Assembly: GCA_001873565.1 (NCBI GenBank)
Contig: MNZJ01000018.1
Location: 1-33,334, forward strand
Reading direction: 5' to 3'
Length of the DNA stretch: 33,334 nt
Source of the DNA: Candidatus Peregrinibacteria bacterium CG2_30_44_17
Lineage (GTDB): Bacteria > Patescibacteriota > Gracilibacteria > UBA1369 > UBA12470
Shown one piece after another: positions 8,046 to 33,105 of this stretch. A program made the translations under genes and the position numbers. Position 1 is the stretch's first letter. Each line of letters opens with the position of its first letter. Below the pieces are notes generated by a model. The model did no database searches. It was not told the DNA's origin and saw only the letters and a list, made by a program, of their open reading frames with translations.

Positions 8046-10433
8046 TTATTCCGACGTCACTGTGATCTCCAGTTCGTAAGTGTCTTTGACGCCACCTGCG
8101 TCTTCGACCTCGAGTTCGACTGTGTATATGCCCACCTCATCGAAAGTATGAGTCGGTTTGCGGTCGTAACTCTTGTCTCCATCGCCGAAATCCCATACAT
8201 AACTCTGGATTGAACCTCCGCTACAAAGCGGGTCAAAAGCTACGATAAGCGGCGCCTTGCCCTGCTCCAAGCTCGCTTCGAAACAAGCAGTGAGTGTTAC
8301 AGGCCTTACCGTGATTGTTATAGAGTCTGAGTCTTCGGAATTGTCGTCTGCAAGGACCGTAACAGTTGCTGTAAATGTCCCTACCGTGTCGTATTCGTAA
8401 GTTACTTCCGCTCCACCGACATACTCGTCAGAACCGTCTCCAAAATCCCAAGTGTAAGCCACTATTTCTCCGTCGGGATATGTTGATCCGGCCGCGCTAA
8501 ACTCTACCTCCATCGGGACTTCTCCCGACGTTGGAGTGACCGTAAGTGCGGCATCCAAGGCCTGACCAGAAACGCTAATTGCTATTGTTTCCGTGTTCGT
8601 ATTTCCATCCGCGTCTATGACTGTTAATGAGGCTATGTATGCGCCGGTTTTTTCGTATGTGTATGTGACTTTTTCGCCTGTGTCATCGGTATCGCCGTTG
8701 CCATCGAAATCCCATTCGTAATCAACGATATTGTCGTCCGCATCAACACTGCTTGAGGCGTCAAAAATGACTTCTAGTGGAACTTCTCCTTCTACCACTC
8801 CGGTCGACGAGTTAGCTTCCGGATCTGTCATAATTACGGCTACGGGTTTTTCCGATGCGCCAATGACTGTTATTTCAATTTTTGTTTTACCAGTTTCACC
8901 GACTTCGTCCTCAACTTCCAATGTGATCAGATAATTACCGGCTTCTTCGTAAGTGTGTTTCGCCGTTCTGGTTTTTACATCATTGCTGCCATCACCAAAA
9001 TCCCATGTGTATTTCGTAATCTCCCCGTTTATCGACTCGGAATCGGCCGCCGAGAACGAATATGAAACTCCAGTATAATACTCGTCATTATCACTGCCTA
9101 TTACTGCAACGACGTCGACGCCACCGGCTGCTATGTCCATTGTTACAACGTTGTAATCTCCATTATTGTCAGTGACTCTGAGAGACACCTCGTATGTCCC
9201 GGCTTGCTCATATGTGTACTCCGCCGTCACGTCTTCTCCATCATCGAATTTGCCGTCTCCGTCGAGATCCCATTCGTAAGAGACTATCTCTCCATCAGGA
9301 TCGACACTGCCAGAAGCATCAAACTCTACGGTTAGCGGTATATCTCCTTTTTCCTGATCTACGGTGAAGCTTGCCGCCACCTTGTCATTACTGAATATTA
9401 CGTCCAAAATGATCTGTTCCGTTGCTTCTTCACCTGTTTCGACATCTTCATAAGTGACAGTCAGAACAACTTCGTATCTGCCGGCATCCGGACCTTTTGT
9501 CGTATATCTATGGCTTACTGTCTCGCCTGTTGCCGTAGAGCCATCTCCAAAATCCCACTCGAAAGATATCAGTTTGTATTGATACGGGTTGAACGGTATT
9601 TGAGATGCATCGAACGTGATTGTCGCAGGTGCTGTTAGGTTAGATAAATCTTCCGGATCTGTCTTGATAATCGAAGTATCTTGCGCCGTCTGAGTTTCCA
9701 CCTGTTGCGAACTTAGATACATGTATGTAAAAGTCCACGCAAAGGCCAATATGACAAATAGCGAACCTCCAAGGATTGCCATCATAATGCCTTTGTTTTT
9801 ACCAGCCTTATCGTCTTTCTTGGTCATTGATACTTTGAAGAGGCCTATGATTCCTACTATGAAAGTTACGAATATCGTCATTCCAAATATGACGTTGGTA
9901 AGTGTTATCAAGAATGGGTAAAAATTCTCCTCTGAAATCCCAAACATCTTAAGGAGAGGATTGTCAGCCCCACCTCCTTGAGTCAAAAGCAGAAATATCA
10001 TCACTATAATAAGTACAAACACTATTCCACCCGTGACAATTCCGGCTGTTATAGCTTTTTTCTTCTTTGCTCTTTTCTTTTTCTCTTGCAATGCTTTCTT
10101 CTGTTCCGGCGTCAGTGCTTGTTCCGGTGTCTTGGGCGCTGGCGCGACTGCAGGTTGAGCTGCAGGAGCTGGCTGAGGCGTCGTGACTACTACCGGAGTA
10201 GGTGCAGGTGCAGGCGTTGATTGTGGTGTCGGAGCCGATGCAGGTGCTACTGCAGGAGCTGGCGTGACTACCTGCGGCTGCTGTTGCTGCTTGGCTATTT
10301 CGGCAGCTTTTGCAACATCCTCCTTATGTTCTTCTACTGTTTTTTCGTTTATATAAATTTTAGGCTGCTCACCTCCCGGATTCGGAGGAGTCTGAGGGAT
10401 TTGATTCCCATTATTTTGCGTATTTTCATCCAT
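8046..10433 (-). CDS. Membrane protein with six extracellular PKD domains
   Basis: This 795-residue protein has a cytoplasmic N-terminus of about 125 residues rich in Pro, Ala, Gln and Thr (runs such as TPAPAVAPASAPTPQ), ending in a basic patch (KKKRAKKKK). Three membrane helices follow (about 127-152, 170-195 and 215-238); the loop between the last two is strongly positive, which places the rest outside. The outer part has six PKD repeats, marked by the WDFGDG-type motifs FEWDFGDGS, YEWDLDGDG, YTWDFGDGS, YEWDFDGNG, YTWDFGDGS and YVWDFGDGD. No peptidase or glycosidase domain is seen. It is the last gene of the minus-strand envelope cluster, separated from the 1591-residue PKD gene by a structured repeat. 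It is probably a surface adhesin or spacer; its function is unknown. Confidence 0.85.
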   Translation of the reverse strand: MDENTQNNGNQIPQTPPNPGGEQPKIYINEKTVEEHKEDVAKAAEIAKQQQQPQVVTPAPAVAPASAPTPQSTPAPAPTPVVVTTPQPAPAAQPAVAPAPKTPEQALTPEQKKALQEKKKRAKKKKAITAGIVTGGIVFVLIIVMIFLLLTQGGGADNPLLKMFGISEENFYPFLITLTNVIFGMTIFVTFIVGIIGLFKVSMTKKDDKAGKNKGIMMAILGGSLFVILAFAWTFTYMYLSSQQVETQTAQDTSIIKTDPEDLSNLTAPATITFDASQIPFNPYQYKLISFEWDFGDGSTATGETVSHRYTTKGPDAGRYEVVLTVTYEDVETGEEATEQIILDVIFSNDKVAASFTVDQEKGDIPLTVEFDASGSVDPDGEIVSYEWDLDGDGKFDDGEDVTAEYTYEQAGTYEVSLRVTDNNGDYNVVTMDIAAGGVDVVAVIGSDNDEYYTGVSYSFSAADSESINGEITKYTWDFGDGSNDVKTRTAKHTYEEAGNYLITLEVEDEVGETGKTKIEITVIGASEKPVAVIMTDPEANSSTGVVEGEVPLEVIFDASSSVDADDNIVDYEWDFDGNGDTDDTGEKVTYTYEKTGAYIASLTVIDADGNTNTETIAISVSGQALDAALTVTPTSGEVPMEVEFSAAGSTYPDGEIVAYTWDFGDGSDEYVGGAEVTYEYDTVGTFTATVTVLADDNSEDSDSITITVRPVTLTACFEASLEQGKAPLIVAFDPLCSGGSIQSYVWDFGDGDKSYDRKPTHTFDEVGIYTVELEVEDAGGVKDTYELEITVTSE

Positions 10434-10718: not shown

Positions 10719-13700
10719 TTAGTTTATCTTCCTCACAGTGTAAATGCTAGCCCCCAAAAGTGCAAATGCAGTGGCAACCATAATAAGAACAAGTCCTTGA
10801 GCACTTGATACGGGGAATAAGTTCGCTGCCCCCGAACTATCGAATACTACTTCTTTTGTAACGGAATAAGAGCTTCCTGTATCGCTTTCTGCAGTAAGCA
10901 TCATCACTACAAGGCCCCATGATGATTCATAAGAAACATCTTTGAAAGTTCCGCTTAAACATGTCGTATCCTCGAGGTCATGATCATTGTCTCTCACGCC
11001 ATCGCCGTCGGTATCAAAATATACGTTTTTATCAAGCCAACAGGTGATACCTGCGCCGCTATCAAGATTGGTAGAGTACGAAATGTCTATTTTCCCCGAA
11101 GATCCGGTTATATGAATTTTTTCATCGCTTGGGCTTGGCTCAGGATTAGTCGTCAAATAAGCTATTACGTCAACTACAGGCTCTTCTAAGTCTATATCGT
11201 TAGTTACAGAGTCTTCCTTGTTCATGGAGTCCATGACTGTTAATCCCACTGTATATGAACCGTAATCGTCGTACTCATAACTTGGCTCATTACTGACGGA
11301 GTCCGTGTCGTTTGCCGGATCACCATCTCCATCCGAGTCAACTAGCGTATCGAAATCCCAAGAGTAAGATGTTATGACTATATAGTCTTCCGCTACAGAT
11401 GAATTATCTGCGAAAGACACTTCTAACCCCTCTGATTCCGATGTGAATGCCGCTGTTGGCGGATCCGTATCTGCAACTAATATAGATTGCTCAACGCTAT
11501 CTGATTGTCCCGCTGAGTCGTATATGACCAAACTAACCTTGTACGTTCCCTCTATGTCGTAAGTGTGAGATGGATTTTGCTCTTTTGAATCAGCATCATC
11601 GCCTGCATCGCCGTTTCCATCCGAGTCCACTAACGTGTCGAAATCCCAATACACAGCGTATAAATCAGCTCCATTAGCTTCGTCTGTTGTTGATTGGTTT
11701 GTGAAATCAACATCGAAACCTCTGACGTCGTAAACAAATGCCGCCTCGGGACCTTGAGCTGTCGATTCCACACAAAGCTGTATCTTCTTATCCGAAGTCG
11801 TAGACTGTCCCTTCTCGTCAGCAACTTTTAGCCTTATGTCGTAGCATCCTACAGCCTTAGGTTCGTACACATATGTTGCATCTGCCGTTTCTGTGTTGTC
11901 GCTGAAACCATCGCCTTCCAAATCCCAAATGTATGCCAAATCGTCACCATCAGGGTCATACGAGCTACTTGATAACGTGACCGTATCTCCCAGCATTATA
12001 ATAGTATCACTTAGGCTGAAGTCCGCCACAGGGGCTTCGTTTTCGCCATTCTCTACCGTTATGGTAGGATCTTCATCAAGCTCGTCACGACTCGACACTG
12101 TGTTTCCCGCTTTGTCTGTGACTTCCACTGCTATTGCATACTCTTTTTCATCTCCTGTGCTGCCATTGGTACCTATAGTCAATGTTGCCGAAGATGTTGT
12201 CGTGATTTGAGCACCCAGTTTTTCACTGGTTTTGCCAGTATCGTAATAATACCAGTAATAGTTGGCGATACTTCCATCCGGGTCCTGTGCGTCCACTTCC
12301 ACCTTCACATCAACCGGTGTTACGTTTGAATCAGACTTGATACTATAAGTCAGAGAGTCAATCTCCGGTGGTTCTTCTGCGACTACGATCTCAAAAGTGT
12401 CTTCCGAGTTGATTGACGGATCGTCTTTATCGCTGACTGTTAGCGTGACTTTATAGGTTCCAAGTTCGTCGTATGTATGACGCGCCGTTTTCTCCGTGCT
12501 AAGAGTTTTGTCTCCAAAATCCCAGCTGTATTTCAAGTCTCTTGAAGTACCGTTTGTATTTTGAGATCCACTCGCGTCGAACGTGAAGACCGTTGTAATA
12601 TTGCCTTCAATATTGAGGCTGCTTACCGGCATGCCGTCTTTTTCAAGAGATATGACTGCAATAGTCGAATTGCTGTCTCCTATATATACCTTCTTTGTAT
12701 AAGTGTTTTCGTTATCGTCATCATCGTATACGGTAAGCTCAACGTTGTATGTGCCTGTCTCCGTATATGTGTGGTAAAAAGTTTTTGATGAAGAACCTTC
12801 CTGTGCTTCGTCTTCGCCATCACCGTAATCCATGACGTATGCAACAGCATTATCGCTTGATCCTGTGAAAGACACTTCCACGCTACCCGCTTCGTCATCT
12901 AGCTGATGAGCCGCTCCGCTTGGCATTTCCAGCAGCACATCCAGCACGGAATAGACCATAATGTCACTGCTTGTTTCGCCGGTTTGTTTCAAATCTTCAT
13001 CTTCGTACTGATCACTGACTTGAAGCGTTACATTGTGACTTCCAGCTTCATAAAATTTCACTATTGGAGACTCTGACGTTTCGTCTGTTCCTTCTGCGAA
13101 TTCGTAATCGCTGCCCTCTGTTCCGTCAAATGTCCAAAGATAGGACAGTGTGTCCCCTTCGTCAGGGTCATAGCTGTTTCCTCCGTCGAAATGGACTGTG
13201 CCTGGCTGTGAGTCGTCCGGTATAGAATAATCGAATTTAGCGATGGGAGTTTGAGATTCGACAGTTATGTCTATCGTGTCCGTATCCTGATTGCCGGAAC
13301 TGTCTGTAACCGTCAGAGACACCGTGTAGACTCCAGGTTCGTCAAAGTTGGAACTCAAATCTTCGGTCGATCCCAAATCTATGCTCTTGCCGGTAGCTGA
13401 CACGGCCGACCACATATAAGCTGTAATCGCTCCTATGTCTGTCTTTGACGCAGATCCATCGAATGAGAACACTGTCTCAGGAGTTCCTGACCAGAATTGA
13501 GATTCAATCCTGGCTGCAGGCGATGCTATTACTATAGTGCCTACATATCTATCAGTAGTGCCTGTAACATCTGTCACTTCCGCTTTAAGCGTATAACTTC
13601 CTTCCCCAGGATATGTACAAATTTCTTCGATCAAGCTTTCGCTTGTATAACTCTCCACACCATTTCCACAATCAAGTGTGTGATAGACAGTAGGATCTCC

Positions 13701-15494
13701 ATTGCCGTCAGTTGTGCCAGCCATCGAAATAGTTATACCGGTTGTTCCTTCCGCCTCAGTGAATTTAGCAGTGGACTCAATTATATTTTCTTCGTAATTC
13801 GCCAATACAACCGTGCTTGAACTTGCGTAAGCTTTCAAAACTATGTTCGACTCCGGAGGATTGACAACTATGCTTATATAAGCCTGTCCAGGTGCGACAT
13901 CAGGATCCTGACTGTATACCCTTAGTCCGACCCTGTATGTTCCTACATCATAATAAGTCTTACTTACCGAGGCTCCTTCTGATTCATACTTGCCATCACC
14001 ATCAAGGTCCCAAGTGTACTGAGAAGAGTCTATCGTCAGATCGCTTGGATCGTAAGAGTCCAAACCGTCGAAGCTTACTATTAGAGGTGAACTGCCTTCT
14101 TTCACGCTTGCTGTAATGACGGTATCCACAAATTCAAGATTCTCGACAAGGGAATACAGGGTCCCCAGATCCGTAATGACATCTCTAAGTACGGAGTTTG
14201 CGAGGAATAATCCGGTAATGAGATCTCCTAGTTTGGAGTCTTCCAGGAATGACTTGTTGGCATCCCAATCCAGACGGCTTACTCCATCCGTACCGAAATA
14301 CCCAAGTACCGTATCGATTTGGTCATCTATTGTCTTGAGAGTTGATCCTCCGTCCTTAACCGCTGCCTGTGATCCAGTCGCATCAAATAGTGTCTTATAT
14401 GACGTCAGAGTTGCCCCGTATTCATCCAGTTTTTCATTAAAATCTATACTTGCCGCTTTCGCAACGCTTTTGAGACCCATTTTGATGTCTTTTTGCAGAG
14501 TATCAAAGTCACCATATTCATAACGGTCCGCATAGGCCACCGGTATAAGCCAGTTATGATTATTGTCAGAATACATGACACCCCATCTCGCATCATATAA
14601 TATTTTTTCAGTATATGCCTTCAAGTCTGATGCAGCTTGATATGTGTCACTATTCCTATCGACCATGTCCATTATTTCCTGTGCGACACTATCTATAATT
14701 TCCACATATTCTCTTACTAAAGCAACTTTCTCCTGATCAATTGATTCATCAGCATCATAATCGTCTTTATCAAACAGACTGAACATGTCTTTAACAGGCT
14801 CAGTATCAGGTGTTTCAAAAGACCAAGCATATTCTATATAAGCATGGACATTGGAATACGTTGTAAATGCAGCGATATATTCTGTCGCCATATCCTGTAA
14901 ATCTTTTGCGATTTGATTGACGTTGTATACATCAACCTGGTCACCTGTTACTTCGTCGCCGGATGAGTAGACGGATCCTTCTCCACGGTCTTCCCCTCCA
15001 CCTGCAGCATCGCTGAGTAGAGTGTTGACTATTGCGTATGATGAAAGCACAACCAAGATACCAATTACTGCGTACATAACTGACTTCTTGCCTTTTGTCG
15101 TCTGTTCTTCTTGTCCTCCCGCAGTTACATAAAGGAAACCTCCGTAAATGATTACAACTATAGCTGCAATTCCAAGGAATGACAGAGCGAAGTTTGTTAC
15201 ATTGAGAATATACTCACGTGCCGTCTTGGCCTTTGTAAGTCCCGAATCGTAACCTTCCGAACTTGGTGCTTCGAAAGATCCTTCAAACTCTGTGAAGCTT
15301 GTGATGTCTCCAGAGTCTTCACAACTCAGAATACCACCTGTGGACTCCTCCATCCCTTCACACAGCGAGTCTTCCACTCCATCCGGAACAAGATCGATCG
15401 CTATGTCCGCGGCTGACGCAAGAGGGATCATGCACATTACCGCAGCCATTACGCCGATTAGCATTACAGCCAGTTTTTTTTGTATTAGCATCAT
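10719..15494 (-). CDS. Giant surface protein: pilin-like module plus about ten PKD-like repeats
   Basis: This 1591-residue protein starts with a signal peptide (about 1-28, ending LASA-AD). A two-helix module follows (about 93-155: NVTNFALSFLGIAAIVVIIY, loop AGGQEEQTTKGKK, second helix ending AIVNTLL) that matches the modules in the two upstream genes. Residues about 185-460 are helical. The rest is a chain of PKD-like beta repeats, some canonical (YTWDLDGDG, YSWDFGDK, YIWDLEGDG, YWDFDTLVDSDGNGD, YSWDFDTLVDSDGDGD) and some degenerate, with Asp-rich calcium-type loops. A C-terminal helix (SAQGLVLIMVATAFALLGAS) and a basic tail anchor the end. The gene has its own promoter, overlapping a terminator. 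It is likely a long membrane-anchored surface fibre or adhesin. Confidence 0.85.
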   Translation of the reverse strand: MMLIQKKLAVMLIGVMAAVMCMIPLASAADIAIDLVPDGVEDSLCEGMEESTGGILSCEDSGDITSFTEFEGSFEAPSSEGYDSGLTKAKTAREYILNVTNFALSFLGIAAIVVIIYGGFLYVTAGGQEEQTTKGKKSVMYAVIGILVVLSSYAIVNTLLSDAAGGGEDRGEGSVYSSGDEVTGDQVDVYNVNQIAKDLQDMATEYIAAFTTYSNVHAYIEYAWSFETPDTEPVKDMFSLFDKDDYDADESIDQEKVALVREYVEIIDSVAQEIMDMVDRNSDTYQAASDLKAYTEKILYDARWGVMYSDNNHNWLIPVAYADRYEYGDFDTLQKDIKMGLKSVAKAASIDFNEKLDEYGATLTSYKTLFDATGSQAAVKDGGSTLKTIDDQIDTVLGYFGTDGVSRLDWDANKSFLEDSKLGDLITGLFLANSVLRDVITDLGTLYSLVENLEFVDTVITASVKEGSSPLIVSFDGLDSYDPSDLTIDSSQYTWDLDGDGKYESEGASVSKTYYDVGTYRVGLRVYSQDPDVAPGQAYISIVVNPPESNIVLKAYASSSTVVLANYEENIIESTAKFTEAEGTTGITISMAGTTDGNGDPTVYHTLDCGNGVESYTSESLIEEICTYPGEGSYTLKAEVTDVTGTTDRYVGTIVIASPAARIESQFWSGTPETVFSFDGSASKTDIGAITAYMWSAVSATGKSIDLGSTEDLSSNFDEPGVYTVSLTVTDSSGNQDTDTIDITVESQTPIAKFDYSIPDDSQPGTVHFDGGNSYDPDEGDTLSYLWTFDGTEGSDYEFAEGTDETSESPIVKFYEAGSHNVTLQVSDQYEDEDLKQTGETSSDIMVYSVLDVLLEMPSGAAHQLDDEAGSVEVSFTGSSDNAVAYVMDYGDGEDEAQEGSSSKTFYHTYTETGTYNVELTVYDDDDNENTYTKKVYIGDSNSTIAVISLEKDGMPVSSLNIEGNITTVFTFDASGSQNTNGTSRDLKYSWDFGDKTLSTEKTARHTYDELGTYKVTLTVSDKDDPSINSEDTFEIVVAEEPPEIDSLTYSIKSDSNVTPVDVKVEVDAQDPDGSIANYYWYYYDTGKTSEKLGAQITTTSSATLTIGTNGSTGDEKEYAIAVEVTDKAGNTVSSRDELDEDPTITVENGENEAPVADFSLSDTIIMLGDTVTLSSSSYDPDGDDLAYIWDLEGDGFSDNTETADATYVYEPKAVGCYDIRLKVADEKGQSTTSDKKIQLCVESTAQGPEAAFVYDVRGFDVDFTNQSTTDEANGADLYAVYWDFDTLVDSDGNGDAGDDADSKEQNPSHTYDIEGTYKVSLVIYDSAGQSDSVEQSILVADTDPPTAAFTSESEGLEVSFADNSSVAEDYIVITSYSWDFDTLVDSDGDGDPANDTDSVSNEPSYEYDDYGSYTVGLTVMDSMNKEDSVTNDIDLEEPVVDVIAYLTTNPEPSPSDEKIHITGSSGKIDISYSTNLDSGAGITCWLDKNVYFDTDGDGVRDNDHDLEDTTCLSGTFKDVSYESSWGLVVMMLTAESDTGSSYSVTKEVVFDSSGAANLFPVSSAQGLVLIMVATAFALLGASIYTVRKIN

Positions 15495-30144: not shown

Positions 30145-31560
30145 TTATTCGTACGTTAGCGCCCAATTGACTCCTAAATCTATCAAATCGCTTCCGTCAA
30201 TACCGCCATCATATGTCGTGTCTATCAGCACATCGTACTCTTCATCTGCATACGTTTCGCCATAATGCTTGGCTATGTTTTCGAGGTCACGTCCATCGAC
30301 TCTATCGGATCTGTTGTTGTCCCCTTTTATGCCACGCGTATCTGACCCTGTGACTACCAGACCTTCACTCTCCACACCATCGTCTATTGTAATAATTTGG
30401 TAGTAATATGTATTACTTGGGATGACATATAGGCTGTCTGTATAAGTTGTCTCGGCTATCTCATCCAGCTCCTCGTAATCACCAGCAGAGTTCATTCGCA
30501 AAACCCTATAACTATCGGCTCCGCTTACCGCATCCCATGTTAAGACGATGGAATATCTTTCCTCGCTCTCTACGGCGATTGCGTTGCCAACCTGAGCCAC
30601 GCTATAGGAGGAAGACGATCCAATACCTGTATTCTCAAAATCGGCCTCAATATCTGCATTTACGCTAGCTATAAAACTATTCGCACTTACGATATTGATT
30701 TCTGCGCTTCCGCTACTCGTTACAAGAAACTCTATTGTGAACAATGTCCCATCTCCATTCACCCCCGTTTTGTCATCTCCGGTTCTTGCCTCACCTACTA
30801 TGATCGTACCCTCTTCTCCGTTCTCCATCTCCGCATTGAAAGAAGTCGCTACTGATCCTGACTCACTCAGAAAGCTTCCTTGAGTAGCTGCCTGATAAGT
30901 GAGGGCTGCTGTGTCATAATCGATATCAAATCCATACGAGAACAGATCTTCGACGTTACTGATGGATGCTGTCACTTCGACGATGTCTCCAATATTAGGT
31001 TCTGCATCTGAGACTGTTAAGGTTACCTCAGTTCCTGTAGAGCTTTCGCTGACACTGTTGAGACCACGAGGAGTTGATAGACTGCTGTCTGCGCAATCGC
31101 TCCAGTTGTCACTACCGGACTCTGTACTGACGATTCTTTCCATAGACGTCTTCGTGTTGTTGTTACCCGCCGGCCAGGCACCGCCTGATGAGTTCACCGT
31201 ATCTATCGTACTACCGGAGTCGTCAATAAGAGCTAGCGAATCGCCTGAGTTGGCAAGCGACAACCTGATGTCCAAATCCGCATTGGTATCCTTGCCAAGC
31301 ACTAAGTATCCGTTCCCTGAAATCGTTCCTGATAATTCGTATGTAGAGGTGCCATCATCTACGATTGTCCACCCAGCTAAATCTAATGCTTCACTTGTAT
31401 TGTTCTTGAGCTCAATCCATTCTGCTGATGAGTCTTCAGCCGATCCAGCCCAAGCTACCTCGTTGATTACAACATCCAGTGAAGATGCGGCCTTTACCTC
31501 TATTGTGAGATTAGGCATAATCGCTAGCACGAGAAGTAGCATCGAAATGTACTTTTTCAT
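30145..31560 (-). CDS. Secreted protein with lamin-tail, cohesin, FN3 and dockerin domains
   Basis: This 471-residue protein has a signal peptide (1-24, YISMLLLVLAIMPNLTIEVKA). A lamin-tail domain follows (about 28-150: VVINEVAWAGSAEDSSAEWI, ELKNNTSEALDLAGWTI, GYLVLGKD). A cohesin-like domain follows (about 175-325: FSYGFDIDYDTAALTYQAAT, GTIIVGEAR, GTLFTIEFLV). An FN3-like domain spans about 330-405 (IVLTWDAVSGADSYRVLR). A C-terminal dockerin spans about 410-470 with two calcium-loop repeats (GDNNRSDRVDGRDLENIAKHYG and DTTYDGGIDGSDLIDLGVNWA, quoted in part by motif). One chain thus carries both a cohesin and a dockerin. It lies 71 bases upstream of a membrane-anchored cohesin gene, its probable partner. 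No catalytic domain is present. Confidence 0.85.
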   Translation of the reverse strand: MKKYISMLLLVLAIMPNLTIEVKAASSLDVVINEVAWAGSAEDSSAEWIELKNNTSEALDLAGWTIVDDGTSTYELSGTISGNGYLVLGKDTNADLDIRLSLANSGDSLALIDDSGSTIDTVNSSGGAWPAGNNNTKTSMERIVSTESGSDNWSDCADSSLSTPRGLNSVSESSTGTEVTLTVSDAEPNIGDIVEVTASISNVEDLFSYGFDIDYDTAALTYQAATQGSFLSESGSVATSFNAEMENGEEGTIIVGEARTGDDKTGVNGDGTLFTIEFLVTSSGSAEINIVSANSFIASVNADIEADFENTGIGSSSSYSVAQVGNAIAVESEERYSIVLTWDAVSGADSYRVLRMNSAGDYEELDEIAETTYTDSLYVIPSNTYYYQIITIDDGVESEGLVVTGSDTRGIKGDNNRSDRVDGRDLENIAKHYGETYADEEYDVLIDTTYDGGIDGSDLIDLGVNWALTYE

Positions 31561-32300: not shown

Positions 32301-32327
32301 TTGCCTTTGCGGATTTCCTGGTATCTT
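32301..32327 (+). promoter_or_regulatory. Possible promoter of tRNA-Ile
   Basis: TTGCCT (32301-32306), 15 bases and TATCTT (32322-32327) lie 9 bases before the tRNA 5' end. The spacing is short and the boxes imperfect. Confidence 0.3.
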
Positions 32328-32354
32328 TGACAATTTGGGCCTGTAGCTCAGTGG

Positions 32355-32744
32355 TTAGAGCAGTCGGCTTAACGGTGTTGGTACTAAGTCGAGGTGTGGA
32401 TTGTGTTCCTCTGCGTGGCAATTGCTACAAAGAAGAACACATTTATCAAGTTCTGCCATGATAGATCTTTTATCTCTATTTGATATTGATCTCATGTCTA
32501 ACTTAAACTCTTTTTCTTTTGCATCTATGTGATGGAAAGACAAAGCGGCTGAATTCTTGCAGTAACCGCATTTAGAGCACTTCCCTCCTGCTAGTTTAAT
32601 CAATTCTAGCTTTCTCTTAACCCCTCTATCTTTTTGGGCGTTATATCCTTGGTGAAGTTTGTTCTTGCATTTAGTACTGCAAAATTTTGATTGTCGGCCT
32701 TGCAAAGGCTGATTACACACAATGCATGTTATGATTTGTTTCAT
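32355..32744 (-). CDS. HNH homing endonuclease encoded antisense in the intron
   Basis: This 129-residue protein has an N-terminal zinc-ribbon-like region (CIVCNQPLQ...FCSTKCKNK, four Cys), a second CxxC (CSKCGYC, about 66-72), then the HNH core: LSFHHIDAKEKEF (HH near 81-82), a spacer, and CVLLCSNCHAEEH with the final zinc Cys pair and His. It is read opposite to the tRNA and lies in the intron P1 loop; its last five codons run back into the 5' exon and the D-arm (stop at 32355-32357). The tail after CHAEEH is therefore junction-derived and probably not functional. Intron homing into intron-less tRNA-Ile genes is the likely role. No clear ribosome binding site is seen; a TATAGT lies about 6 bases upstream of the ATG. 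Confidence 0.88.
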   Translation of the reverse strand: MKQIITCIVCNQPLQGRQSKFCSTKCKNKLHQGYNAQKDRGVKRKLELIKLAGGKCSKCGYCKNSAALSFHHIDAKEKEFKLDMRSISNRDKRSIMAELDKCVLLCSNCHAEEHNPHLDLVPTPLSRLL

Positions 32745-33030
32745 AACCGCACTATAACACGATACGTATCACCATCATAGGGCTGTGATCGGAGTAATCC
32801 GATCATGAATATCTGTCAAATTCGGGGAAACCTAAAGATCGTTATGCGATTTATGGCAATCCCGAGCCAAGTCTCCTGCTTAGCAGGAGAAAGGTGTAGA
32901 GACTAGACGGCAGACATCCTTTTGATAGCAAGGAAGGCGACTTGATCGCTTCGCTTCCTGTCTCTCTTTGGGATGAAGGGATAGTCCAGCTTACAAACTC
33001 GAAAGAGATCATGAAAGTGATAGTGAGATG
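32370..33030 (+). ncRNA. Group I intron (IC3-like) in the tRNA-Ile anticodon loop
   Basis: The 661-base intron sits between U33 and C34. The 5' exon end CGGCT (32365-32369) pairs with the guide GGCTG (32781-32785), leaving the standard U-G pair at the splice site. P2 is TGATCGG/CCGATCA (32786-32805). The core then follows closely the Azoarcus tRNA-Ile ribozyme as I remember it: GTCAAATTCGG...GAAACCTAA, TATGGCAA...CGAGCCAAG, GGTGTAGAGACTAGACGG and ATAGTCCAG. P4 is TTCGGG/CCCGA, P6 includes CTCCTGC/GCAGGAG (32873-32889), P7 is GACTA (32901-32905)/TAGTC (32982-32986), and P8 is CATCC (32915-32919)/GGATG (32971-32975) with an extra hairpin. The last base is G (33030). The large P1 loop holds an antisense HNH gene. 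Confidence 0.93.
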
Positions 33031-33076
33031 CATAACCGATTGGTCGCTGGTTCAAGTCCAGCCAGGCCCACCAATA

Positions 33077-33105
33077 TTGACAATTCCGTAATCCAATGGC
33101 ATGAT
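33077..33105 (+). promoter_or_regulatory. Promoter of the secreted protein gene at the window end
   Basis: TTGACA (33077-33082, full consensus), 17 bases and CATGAT (33100-33105) begin 4 bases after the tRNA CCA end and lie 27 bases before the ATG at 33133. Confidence 0.6.

What the first reader, a model, noticed from the sequence alone, without database searches (positions are those of the whole stretch)
32337..33073. tRNA-Ile(CAU) gene split by a group I intron 5' of the anticodon (U33/C34)
The sequence shows two tRNA halves that join into a standard tRNA-Ile2 and a 661-base insert with a recognisable IC3 core. In the Azoarcus tRNA-Ile intron, as I recall it, the 5' exon ends in CAU, so the insertion follows the anticodon. 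Here the guide sequence GGCTG pairs with CGGCT and places the break before the anticodon. This would be a different insertion site in the same tRNA with a closely related ribozyme core. The tRNA is essential for AUA decoding, so splicing would be needed for viability if this is the only copy.
Basis: partly seen in the sequence, partly recalled or inferred. Interest (0 to 1): 0.85.

Follow-up and report, generated by a model that had tools for sequence, protein, structure and literature searches.

The report
Self-splicing intron splitting tRNA-Ile(CAU) gene
[quoted passage not shown] the same arrangement recurs across several bacterial phyla and on two phage-like contigs.

Summary
5' exon 32337-32369, 661-nt intron 32370-33030 and 3' exon 33031-33073 join into a 76-nt tRNA with anticodon CAU. 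The intron core matches Rfam RF00028 (77.8 bits, E 2.5e-18). The U33|C34 junction is independently supported. Intact alleles in relatives read ...GGCT^CATAACC; every intron ends in G; in 56 of 56 distinct related introns the guide pairs with U33, C32 and base 31, including 8 compensatory G31-C to A31-U changes. The gene is the only tRNA-Ile(CAU) in the 97%-complete genome, which also encodes TilS. None of 25 intron-bearing relatives' genomes shows an intact copy.

The same antisense gene sits in the same site in several Patescibacteria lineages, Chloroflexota, Acidobacteriota and two phage-like contigs.

So this is one member of a widespread mobile group I intron family, not a one-off. [quoted passage not shown] Splicing, homing and the promoter are inferred, not shown.

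The parts
32337..32369 (+). 5' exon of tRNA-Ile2(CAU), bases 1-33 (ends ...GTCGGCT)
   Evidence: ARAGORN -i and joined-exon fold; intact alleles in relatives
32370..33030 (+). group I intron, 661 nt, ends in the terminal G
33031..33073 (+). 3' exon of tRNA-Ile2(CAU), C34 to the encoded CCA
32365..32370 (+). 5' strand of P1: exon C29-U33 plus intron base +1
   Evidence: pairing with the guide in 56 related introns
32780..32785 (+). internal guide sequence GGGCTG (G32781 pairs with U33)
32786..32805 (+). P2 hairpin with a GUAA loop
   Evidence: 8 of 8 pairs have changes on both sides
32812..32817 (+). P3, 5' strand (3' strand 32909-32914)
   Evidence: 100% paired, 4 of 6 pairs compensatory
32822..32865 (+). 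P4 (32822-32827 with 32860-32865) enclosing P5 with a CCUAA/UAUGG tetraloop-receptor-like motif
   Evidence: motif read from the sequence
32867..32894 (+). P6 and P6a
32901..32905 (+). P7, 5' strand (3' strand 32982-32986), guanosine-binding helix
   Evidence: 100% paired, one pair with 12 compensatory cells
32915..32975 (+). P8 (32915-32920 with 32970-32975)
32990..33027 (+). P9.0 (32990-32994 with 33023-33027) enclosing GAAA hairpins P9 and P9.1
33030..33030 (+). terminal guanosine of the intron (3' splice site)
   Evidence: invariant in the alignment
32355..32744 (-). HNH endonuclease gene (129 aa), antisense to the tRNA, in the distal loop of P1; its last four codons and stop codon lie in the tRNA 5' exon
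32751..32756 (-). TATAGT, a -10-like box 7 nt upstream of the antisense ATG
   Evidence: conserved TATAAT-like column pattern in 42 relatives

Best explanation
The region is the cell's only tRNA-Ile2(CAU) gene, interrupted between U33 and C34 by a group I intron. In the transcript the guide GGGCTG pairs with exon bases C29-U33; an external guanosine bound in P7 cuts after U33; the freed U33 attacks after the terminal G at 33030; the exons join into a 76-nt tRNA, whose C34 TilS then converts to lysidine so that it reads AUA (steps inferred from anatomy). The distal loop of P1 carries, on the opposite strand, an HNH homing endonuclease gene, probably expressed from its own promoter inside the intron. 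The enzyme most likely cuts intron-free tRNA-Ile genes so that repair copies the intron in (inferred).
For: RF00028 match at E 2.5e-18. Split tRNA found with exactly these ends. Only one junction gives the product. 36 other tRNA hits over the cut-off, none a tRNA-Ile(CAU); the other two CAT tRNAs read as initiator and elongator Met. TilS present, 175.5 bits. Intact allele in 32 of 89 genomes of the order and in none of the 25 with the intron, with both states inside three genera. Core structure 94.6% paired with 44 compensatory pairs, including P3 and P7. Guide pairs with U33 and C32 in 56 of 56 introns and covaries with base 31. Antisense HNH ORF in all 11 order members with introns of 600 nt or more and in none of 14 short ones; 44 invariant residues including the Cys/His/Asn set; PHROG HNH families at 4.7e-21; median dN/dS 0.17 and an excess of third-position changes; TATAAT-like box.
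Against: No splicing, cleavage or expression data. P10 is only one base pair here. Pfam gives the HNH protein only sub-threshold hits and Foldseek only weak HNH matches, best E 0.037. dS is near saturation, so the dN/dS value is rough. The own -10 box is imperfect (TATAGT), no -35 is evident, and the promoter scan of the region is little above shuffles and does not list the box.
Confidence: 0.88

Rival explanations
1. The intron is a fixed, immobile relic: it splices, but the antisense ORF is no longer or never was a homing enzyme for this site, and the intron is inherited vertically.
For: 14 of 25 order members have lost or never had the ORF. The endonuclease tree groups mostly by host lineage, and a single Peregrinibacteria clade is not rejected (p-AU 0.10).
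Against: The ORF is open and conserved in every long intron and under purifying selection. Intron presence differs within genera. The same intron plus ORF sits on phage-like contigs.
Confidence: 0.15
2. Splicing joins U33 plus intron U+1 to a different acceptor, giving another anticodon loop (for example UAU).
For: U+1 can also pair with G32780 here.
Against: It would need an intron ending in C, or would give an 8-nt anticodon loop; every intron ends in G; 23 of 56 related introns have C at +1; intact alleles read GGCTCATAACC.
Confidence: 0.02
3. The split gene is dead and AUA is read by another tRNA.
For: The genome is a 51-contig draft, so a second copy could be missing; the locus lies 261 bp from a contig end.
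Against: TilS is present, no other tRNA-Ile(CAU) was found, no tRNA(UAU) was called among the fetched tRNAs, and all 25 intron-bearing relatives lack an intact copy.
Confidence: 0.03

Closest known systems
[quoted passage not shown]
   Same: Group I introns at an unusual site in tRNA genes of the same phylum, by its title
   Different: Text not held, so I cannot say whether its site is U33|C34 of tRNA-Ile, one of the other sites seen here (tRNA-Thr, Asn, Phe, Asp, Ser), or whether it mentions the antisense HNH gene
Azoarcus BH72 tRNA-Ile(CAU) group I intron, and tRNA-Ile2 introns of Acidovorax and Burkholderia (PMC8450103)
   Same: Same host tRNA, group I ribozyme, anticodon-loop insertion
   Different: The Azoarcus guide binds CAU (PMC6274277), so that intron follows the anticodon; here it precedes it. 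The Azoarcus intron has no ORF (own knowledge)
Synechocystis PCC 6803 tRNA-fMet intron with its PD-(D/E)XK endonuclease gene in P1 (PMC3073962)
   Same: Bacterial tRNA group I intron with a homing endonuclease gene in the P1 loop
   Different: Different tRNA, different nuclease family (PD-(D/E)XK rather than HNH); orientation there is sense as far as I know
LAGLIDADG-encoding group I introns in rRNA genes of CPR bacteria (PMC11270868)
   Same: Same broad bacterial group, mobile group I introns
   Different: rRNA host genes and LAGLIDADG enzymes; the main text does not mention tRNA, HNH or antisense

Membership tests
Group I intron | Matches the group I covariance model above its curated cut-off | tested here: met
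   77.8 bits against 50, E 2.5e-18, model 1-253 complete
Group I intron | 5' exon ends in U paired with G of the guide (P1) | tested here: met
   U33 with G in 56 of 56 introns; base 31 covaries
Group I intron | Intron ends in G | tested here: met
   Invariant column in 46 aligned introns
Group I intron | P3/P7 pseudoknot with conserved guanosine-binding P7 | tested here: met
   P3 and P7 100% paired; compensatory changes in both
Group I intron | Self-splices with guanosine and Mg2+ | not testable with these tools
   Needs RNA work
Subgroup IC3 | Subgroup-specific sequence and peripheral elements | not tested
   Anatomy fits (P2 with GNRA loop, receptor-like P5, GAAA P9) but no subgroup models were on hand
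tRNA-Ile2(CAU), lysidine tRNA | Standard tRNA fold with CAU, distinct from initiator and elongator Met | tested here: met
   the two other CAT tRNAs of the genome were read by eye as initiator and elongator Met
tRNA-Ile2(CAU), lysidine tRNA | TilS encoded in the genome | tested here: met
   TIGR02432, 175.5 bits
Azoarcus-type tRNA-Ile intron | Insertion after the anticodon (CAU|A) | tested here: not met
   Junction is U33|C34
HNH endonuclease | HNH motif and zinc-binding cysteines | tested here: met
   Invariant C7 C10 C22 C26 C56 C59 H71 H72 C106 N108 C109 H110 H114; PHROG HNH families in all 11 members
Homing endonuclease | Cuts the intron-free allele and drives copying of the intron | not testable with these tools
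   Only circumstantial: ORF in a mobile-looking intron with patchy presence

The most novel reading that the evidence does not exclude
A cross-phylum family of mobile tRNA-Ile2 introns at U33|C34, spread in part by phages, whose HNH gene is transcribed as a leaderless message from its own promoter across the tRNA exon on the opposite strand, so that homing-gene expression and maturation of an essential tRNA are in direct conflict or under mutual control.
Probability: 0.3. Interest if true: 0.65.

Novelty: new variant of a known kind. Interest (0 to 1): 0.47.

Why it matters
[quoted passage not shown] Here AUA decoding depends on a ribozyme in about a quarter of one order, and the same intron and endonuclease occur in distant phyla and on phage-like contigs. 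That makes the family a testable case of how a selfish element persists in an essential single-copy gene, and of how an antisense gene can sit inside a structured RNA.

Tried and rejected
Alternative junctions: only one gives the spliced tRNA and ends in G. A second tRNA-Ile(CAU) in the genome: none found. The exact-sequence 5'-exon pattern search across the phylum matched only genomes of the same order (7 of 380), but that pattern is tied to one exon sequence; the endonuclease search then found the site in other lineages, so the pattern result says little about distribution. Between-phylum transfer of the endonuclease: the tree is poorly resolved and a single Peregrinibacteria clade is not rejected (p-AU 0.10), so transfer is suggested by patchiness but not shown. 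A tetraloop-receptor-like motif in the P1 extension occurs in 31 of 56 introns (11 of 14 short ones); suggestive only. Laying the whole genome in the Python box was not available. The original Biniszkiewicz and Paquin papers and the 2025 preprint are not held.

Full report
What is there. The stretch 32337-33073 holds two halves of one tRNA gene with a 661-nt insert. ARAGORN sees nothing when introns are excluded and one tRNA(cat) with a 661-nt intron at base 34 when they are allowed. The joined exons (33 + 43 nt) give a complete tRNA with anticodon CAU and an encoded CCA. Rfam's Group I intron model matches 32766-33011 over its full length with 77.8 bits, E 2.5e-18, and nowhere else in the genome.

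Which tRNA. The genome (1.17 Mb, 51 contigs, 97% complete) gives 37 tRNA hits. Only two others carry CAT. They sit side by side, and reading their sequences (printed), one has the C1-A72 mismatch and GGG/CCC stem of an initiator and the other reads as an elongator Met. The lysidine synthetase TilS is present (175.5 bits). The split gene is therefore the only tRNA-Ile2(CAU) seen.

Where it is cut. For this sequence a single junction yields the product: after U33, with the intron ending in G. Three independent lines agree. First, 32 of 89 genomes of the order carry the uninterrupted sequence AGCAGTCGGCTCATAACCG (up to one mismatch), so the empty site is known; none of the 25 intron-bearing genomes has it (introns). 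Second, across 56 distinct introns the guide pairs U33 with G and C32 with G every time, and base 31 pairs in all 56: G-C in 47, A-U in 8, G-U in 1. Third, the intron's last base is G in every aligned row. P10 is weak here (1 pair; 3 or more in 16 of 56 introns).

Is the ribozyme intact. On 46 introns from several lineages the core helices P2 to P9.1 are 94.6% paired; 44 of 61 pairs have changes on both sides; shuffles never reach these values and sliding the partners by one column drops pairing to about 45%. P7, the guanosine-binding helix, is fully paired and its last pair changes A-U to G-C or U-A in 12 sequences. This supports a working group I ribozyme; splicing itself is inferred.

The intron is long because the distal loop of P1 contains an open reading frame of 129 codons on the opposite strand, 32355-32744. 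All 11 introns of 600 nt or more at this site in the order (the window's among them) carry such an antisense ORF, the ten others 55-63% identical to the window's by blastp, and none of the 14 short ones (239-319 nt) does. The proteins share 44 invariant residues, including the cysteine pairs and the His/Asn/His set of HNH nucleases. PHROGs gives HNH families (4.7e-21 for the window protein), Pfam only sub-threshold HNH hits, and the AlphaFold model (pLDDT 78.5) finds mainly HNH nucleases in the PDB, weakly. Median dN/dS is 0.17 on usable pairs and third positions hold 48% of differences: the antisense frame is under selection as protein. In the window and four relatives the stop codon is supplied by the tRNA 5' exon itself (the protein ends SRLL, which is exon read backwards). 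Upstream of the ATG, 42 sequences including the window share a TATAAT-like box at -12 to -7. That spacing would start the message at or near the ATG, so a leaderless transcript from an internal promoter is a reasonable inference; the simple promoter scan does not list it.

How widespread. Searching for the endonuclease in GTDB species found the same U33|C34 tRNA-Ile intron, always with the HNH gene antisense to the tRNA, in Peregrinibacteria, Saccharibacteria, Moranbacteria, a Gracilibacteria genome, Anaerolineae (Chloroflexota) and Acidobacteriota, and in two IMG/VR contigs. Related HNH genes lie in sense inside tRNA-Gln introns of Bacteroidota and tRNA-Asn introns, and next to tRNA-Gln introns in Gammaproteobacteria. 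The two viral contigs look phage-like: L188 has endolysin and nucleotide-metabolism genes, L193 tail-fibre, a tRNA array and a TilS-like gene. Within three genera of the window's order both intron-bearing and intron-free tRNA-Ile genes occur, so gains or losses are recent. Transfer between phyla is not proved: the endonuclease tree is weakly resolved and one Peregrinibacteria clade is not rejected.

The organism. Several same-order genomes have contigs of the same length as named Candidatus Peregrinibacteria or Peribacteria records returned for the same protein (for example 86,849 and 131,239 bases), so the order is Peregrinibacteria-like (inference).

How it most likely works. The pre-tRNA folds, the guide captures the 5' exon end, guanosine cleaves after U33, and the exons join; RNase P and TilS then finish the tRNA. 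The HNH enzyme, made from the opposite strand, probably cuts intron-free tRNA-Ile genes and so spreads the intron. The ribozyme part is well supported by sequence; the homing part is inferred from the gene's family, conservation and patchy distribution.

Known or new. Group I introns in tRNA-Ile2 are known from Azoarcus, Acidovorax and Burkholderia (PMC8450103, for the last two). The Azoarcus guide binds CAU (PMC6274277), so that intron follows the anticodon. tRNA introns in CPR bacteria have been noted (PMC8172020), and a 2025 preprint on a novel insertion site in Patescibacteria tRNA genes exists (cited in PMC12641178) but could not be read. An endonuclease gene in P1 has precedent in Synechocystis tRNA-fMet (PMC3073962). 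A 2014 review states that all phage introns seen until then were in protein-coding genes (PMC3984707), so the two phage-like contigs with an intron in tRNA are worth following. I rate the find a new variant of a known kind: ordinary as a group I intron, less ordinary for its site, its antisense HNH gene and its spread.

Noticed in passing
L188 and L193 (IMG/VR contigs): Two phage-like contigs carry a tRNA-Ile(CAU) gene split by the same intron with the antisense HNH gene; L193 also encodes a TilS-like protein (TIGR02432, 84.8 bits, below cut-off) next to it and a long tRNA array.
   Followed up: partly
L032-L036, L043, L037, L039, L072, L074, L076, L080-L082, L086, L089-L092 (genomes of the same order and class): Group I introns also split tRNA-Asn(GUU), Asp(GUC), Thr(UGU), Phe(GAA) and Ser(UGA) at U33 or U35 in relatives; 51 of 148 genomes searched have at least one group I intron.
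   Followed up: partly
L151, L153-L155, L157, L160-L162, L164 (Bacteroidota) and L122, L131, L145 (Gammaproteobacteria and other Proteobacteria): tRNA-Gln(CUG) genes appear split with a 5' exon ending in C rather than U, with a related HNH gene in sense inside (Bacteroidota) or next to the gene; the exact junction and the 5' splice-site base deserve a check.
   Followed up: no
window 32327-32335 and 33077-33085: The 9-mer TTGACAATT flanks the tRNA gene on both sides; may be chance.
   Followed up: no
G000:C26:8148-8224 (L005): A tRNA-like sequence scoring below the tRNA cut-off (27.9 bits) beside tRNA-Thr(GGT), with an odd central region (GCCACCATAGCTCAGTGGTAGAGCACTCCCATGG...); unassigned.
   Followed up: no
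window 8046-10433, 10719-15494, 30145-31560: Large PKD-domain proteins (795 and 1591 aa) and a protein with lamin-tail and cohesin domains, likely cell-surface proteins of this small-genome bacterium.
   Followed up: no
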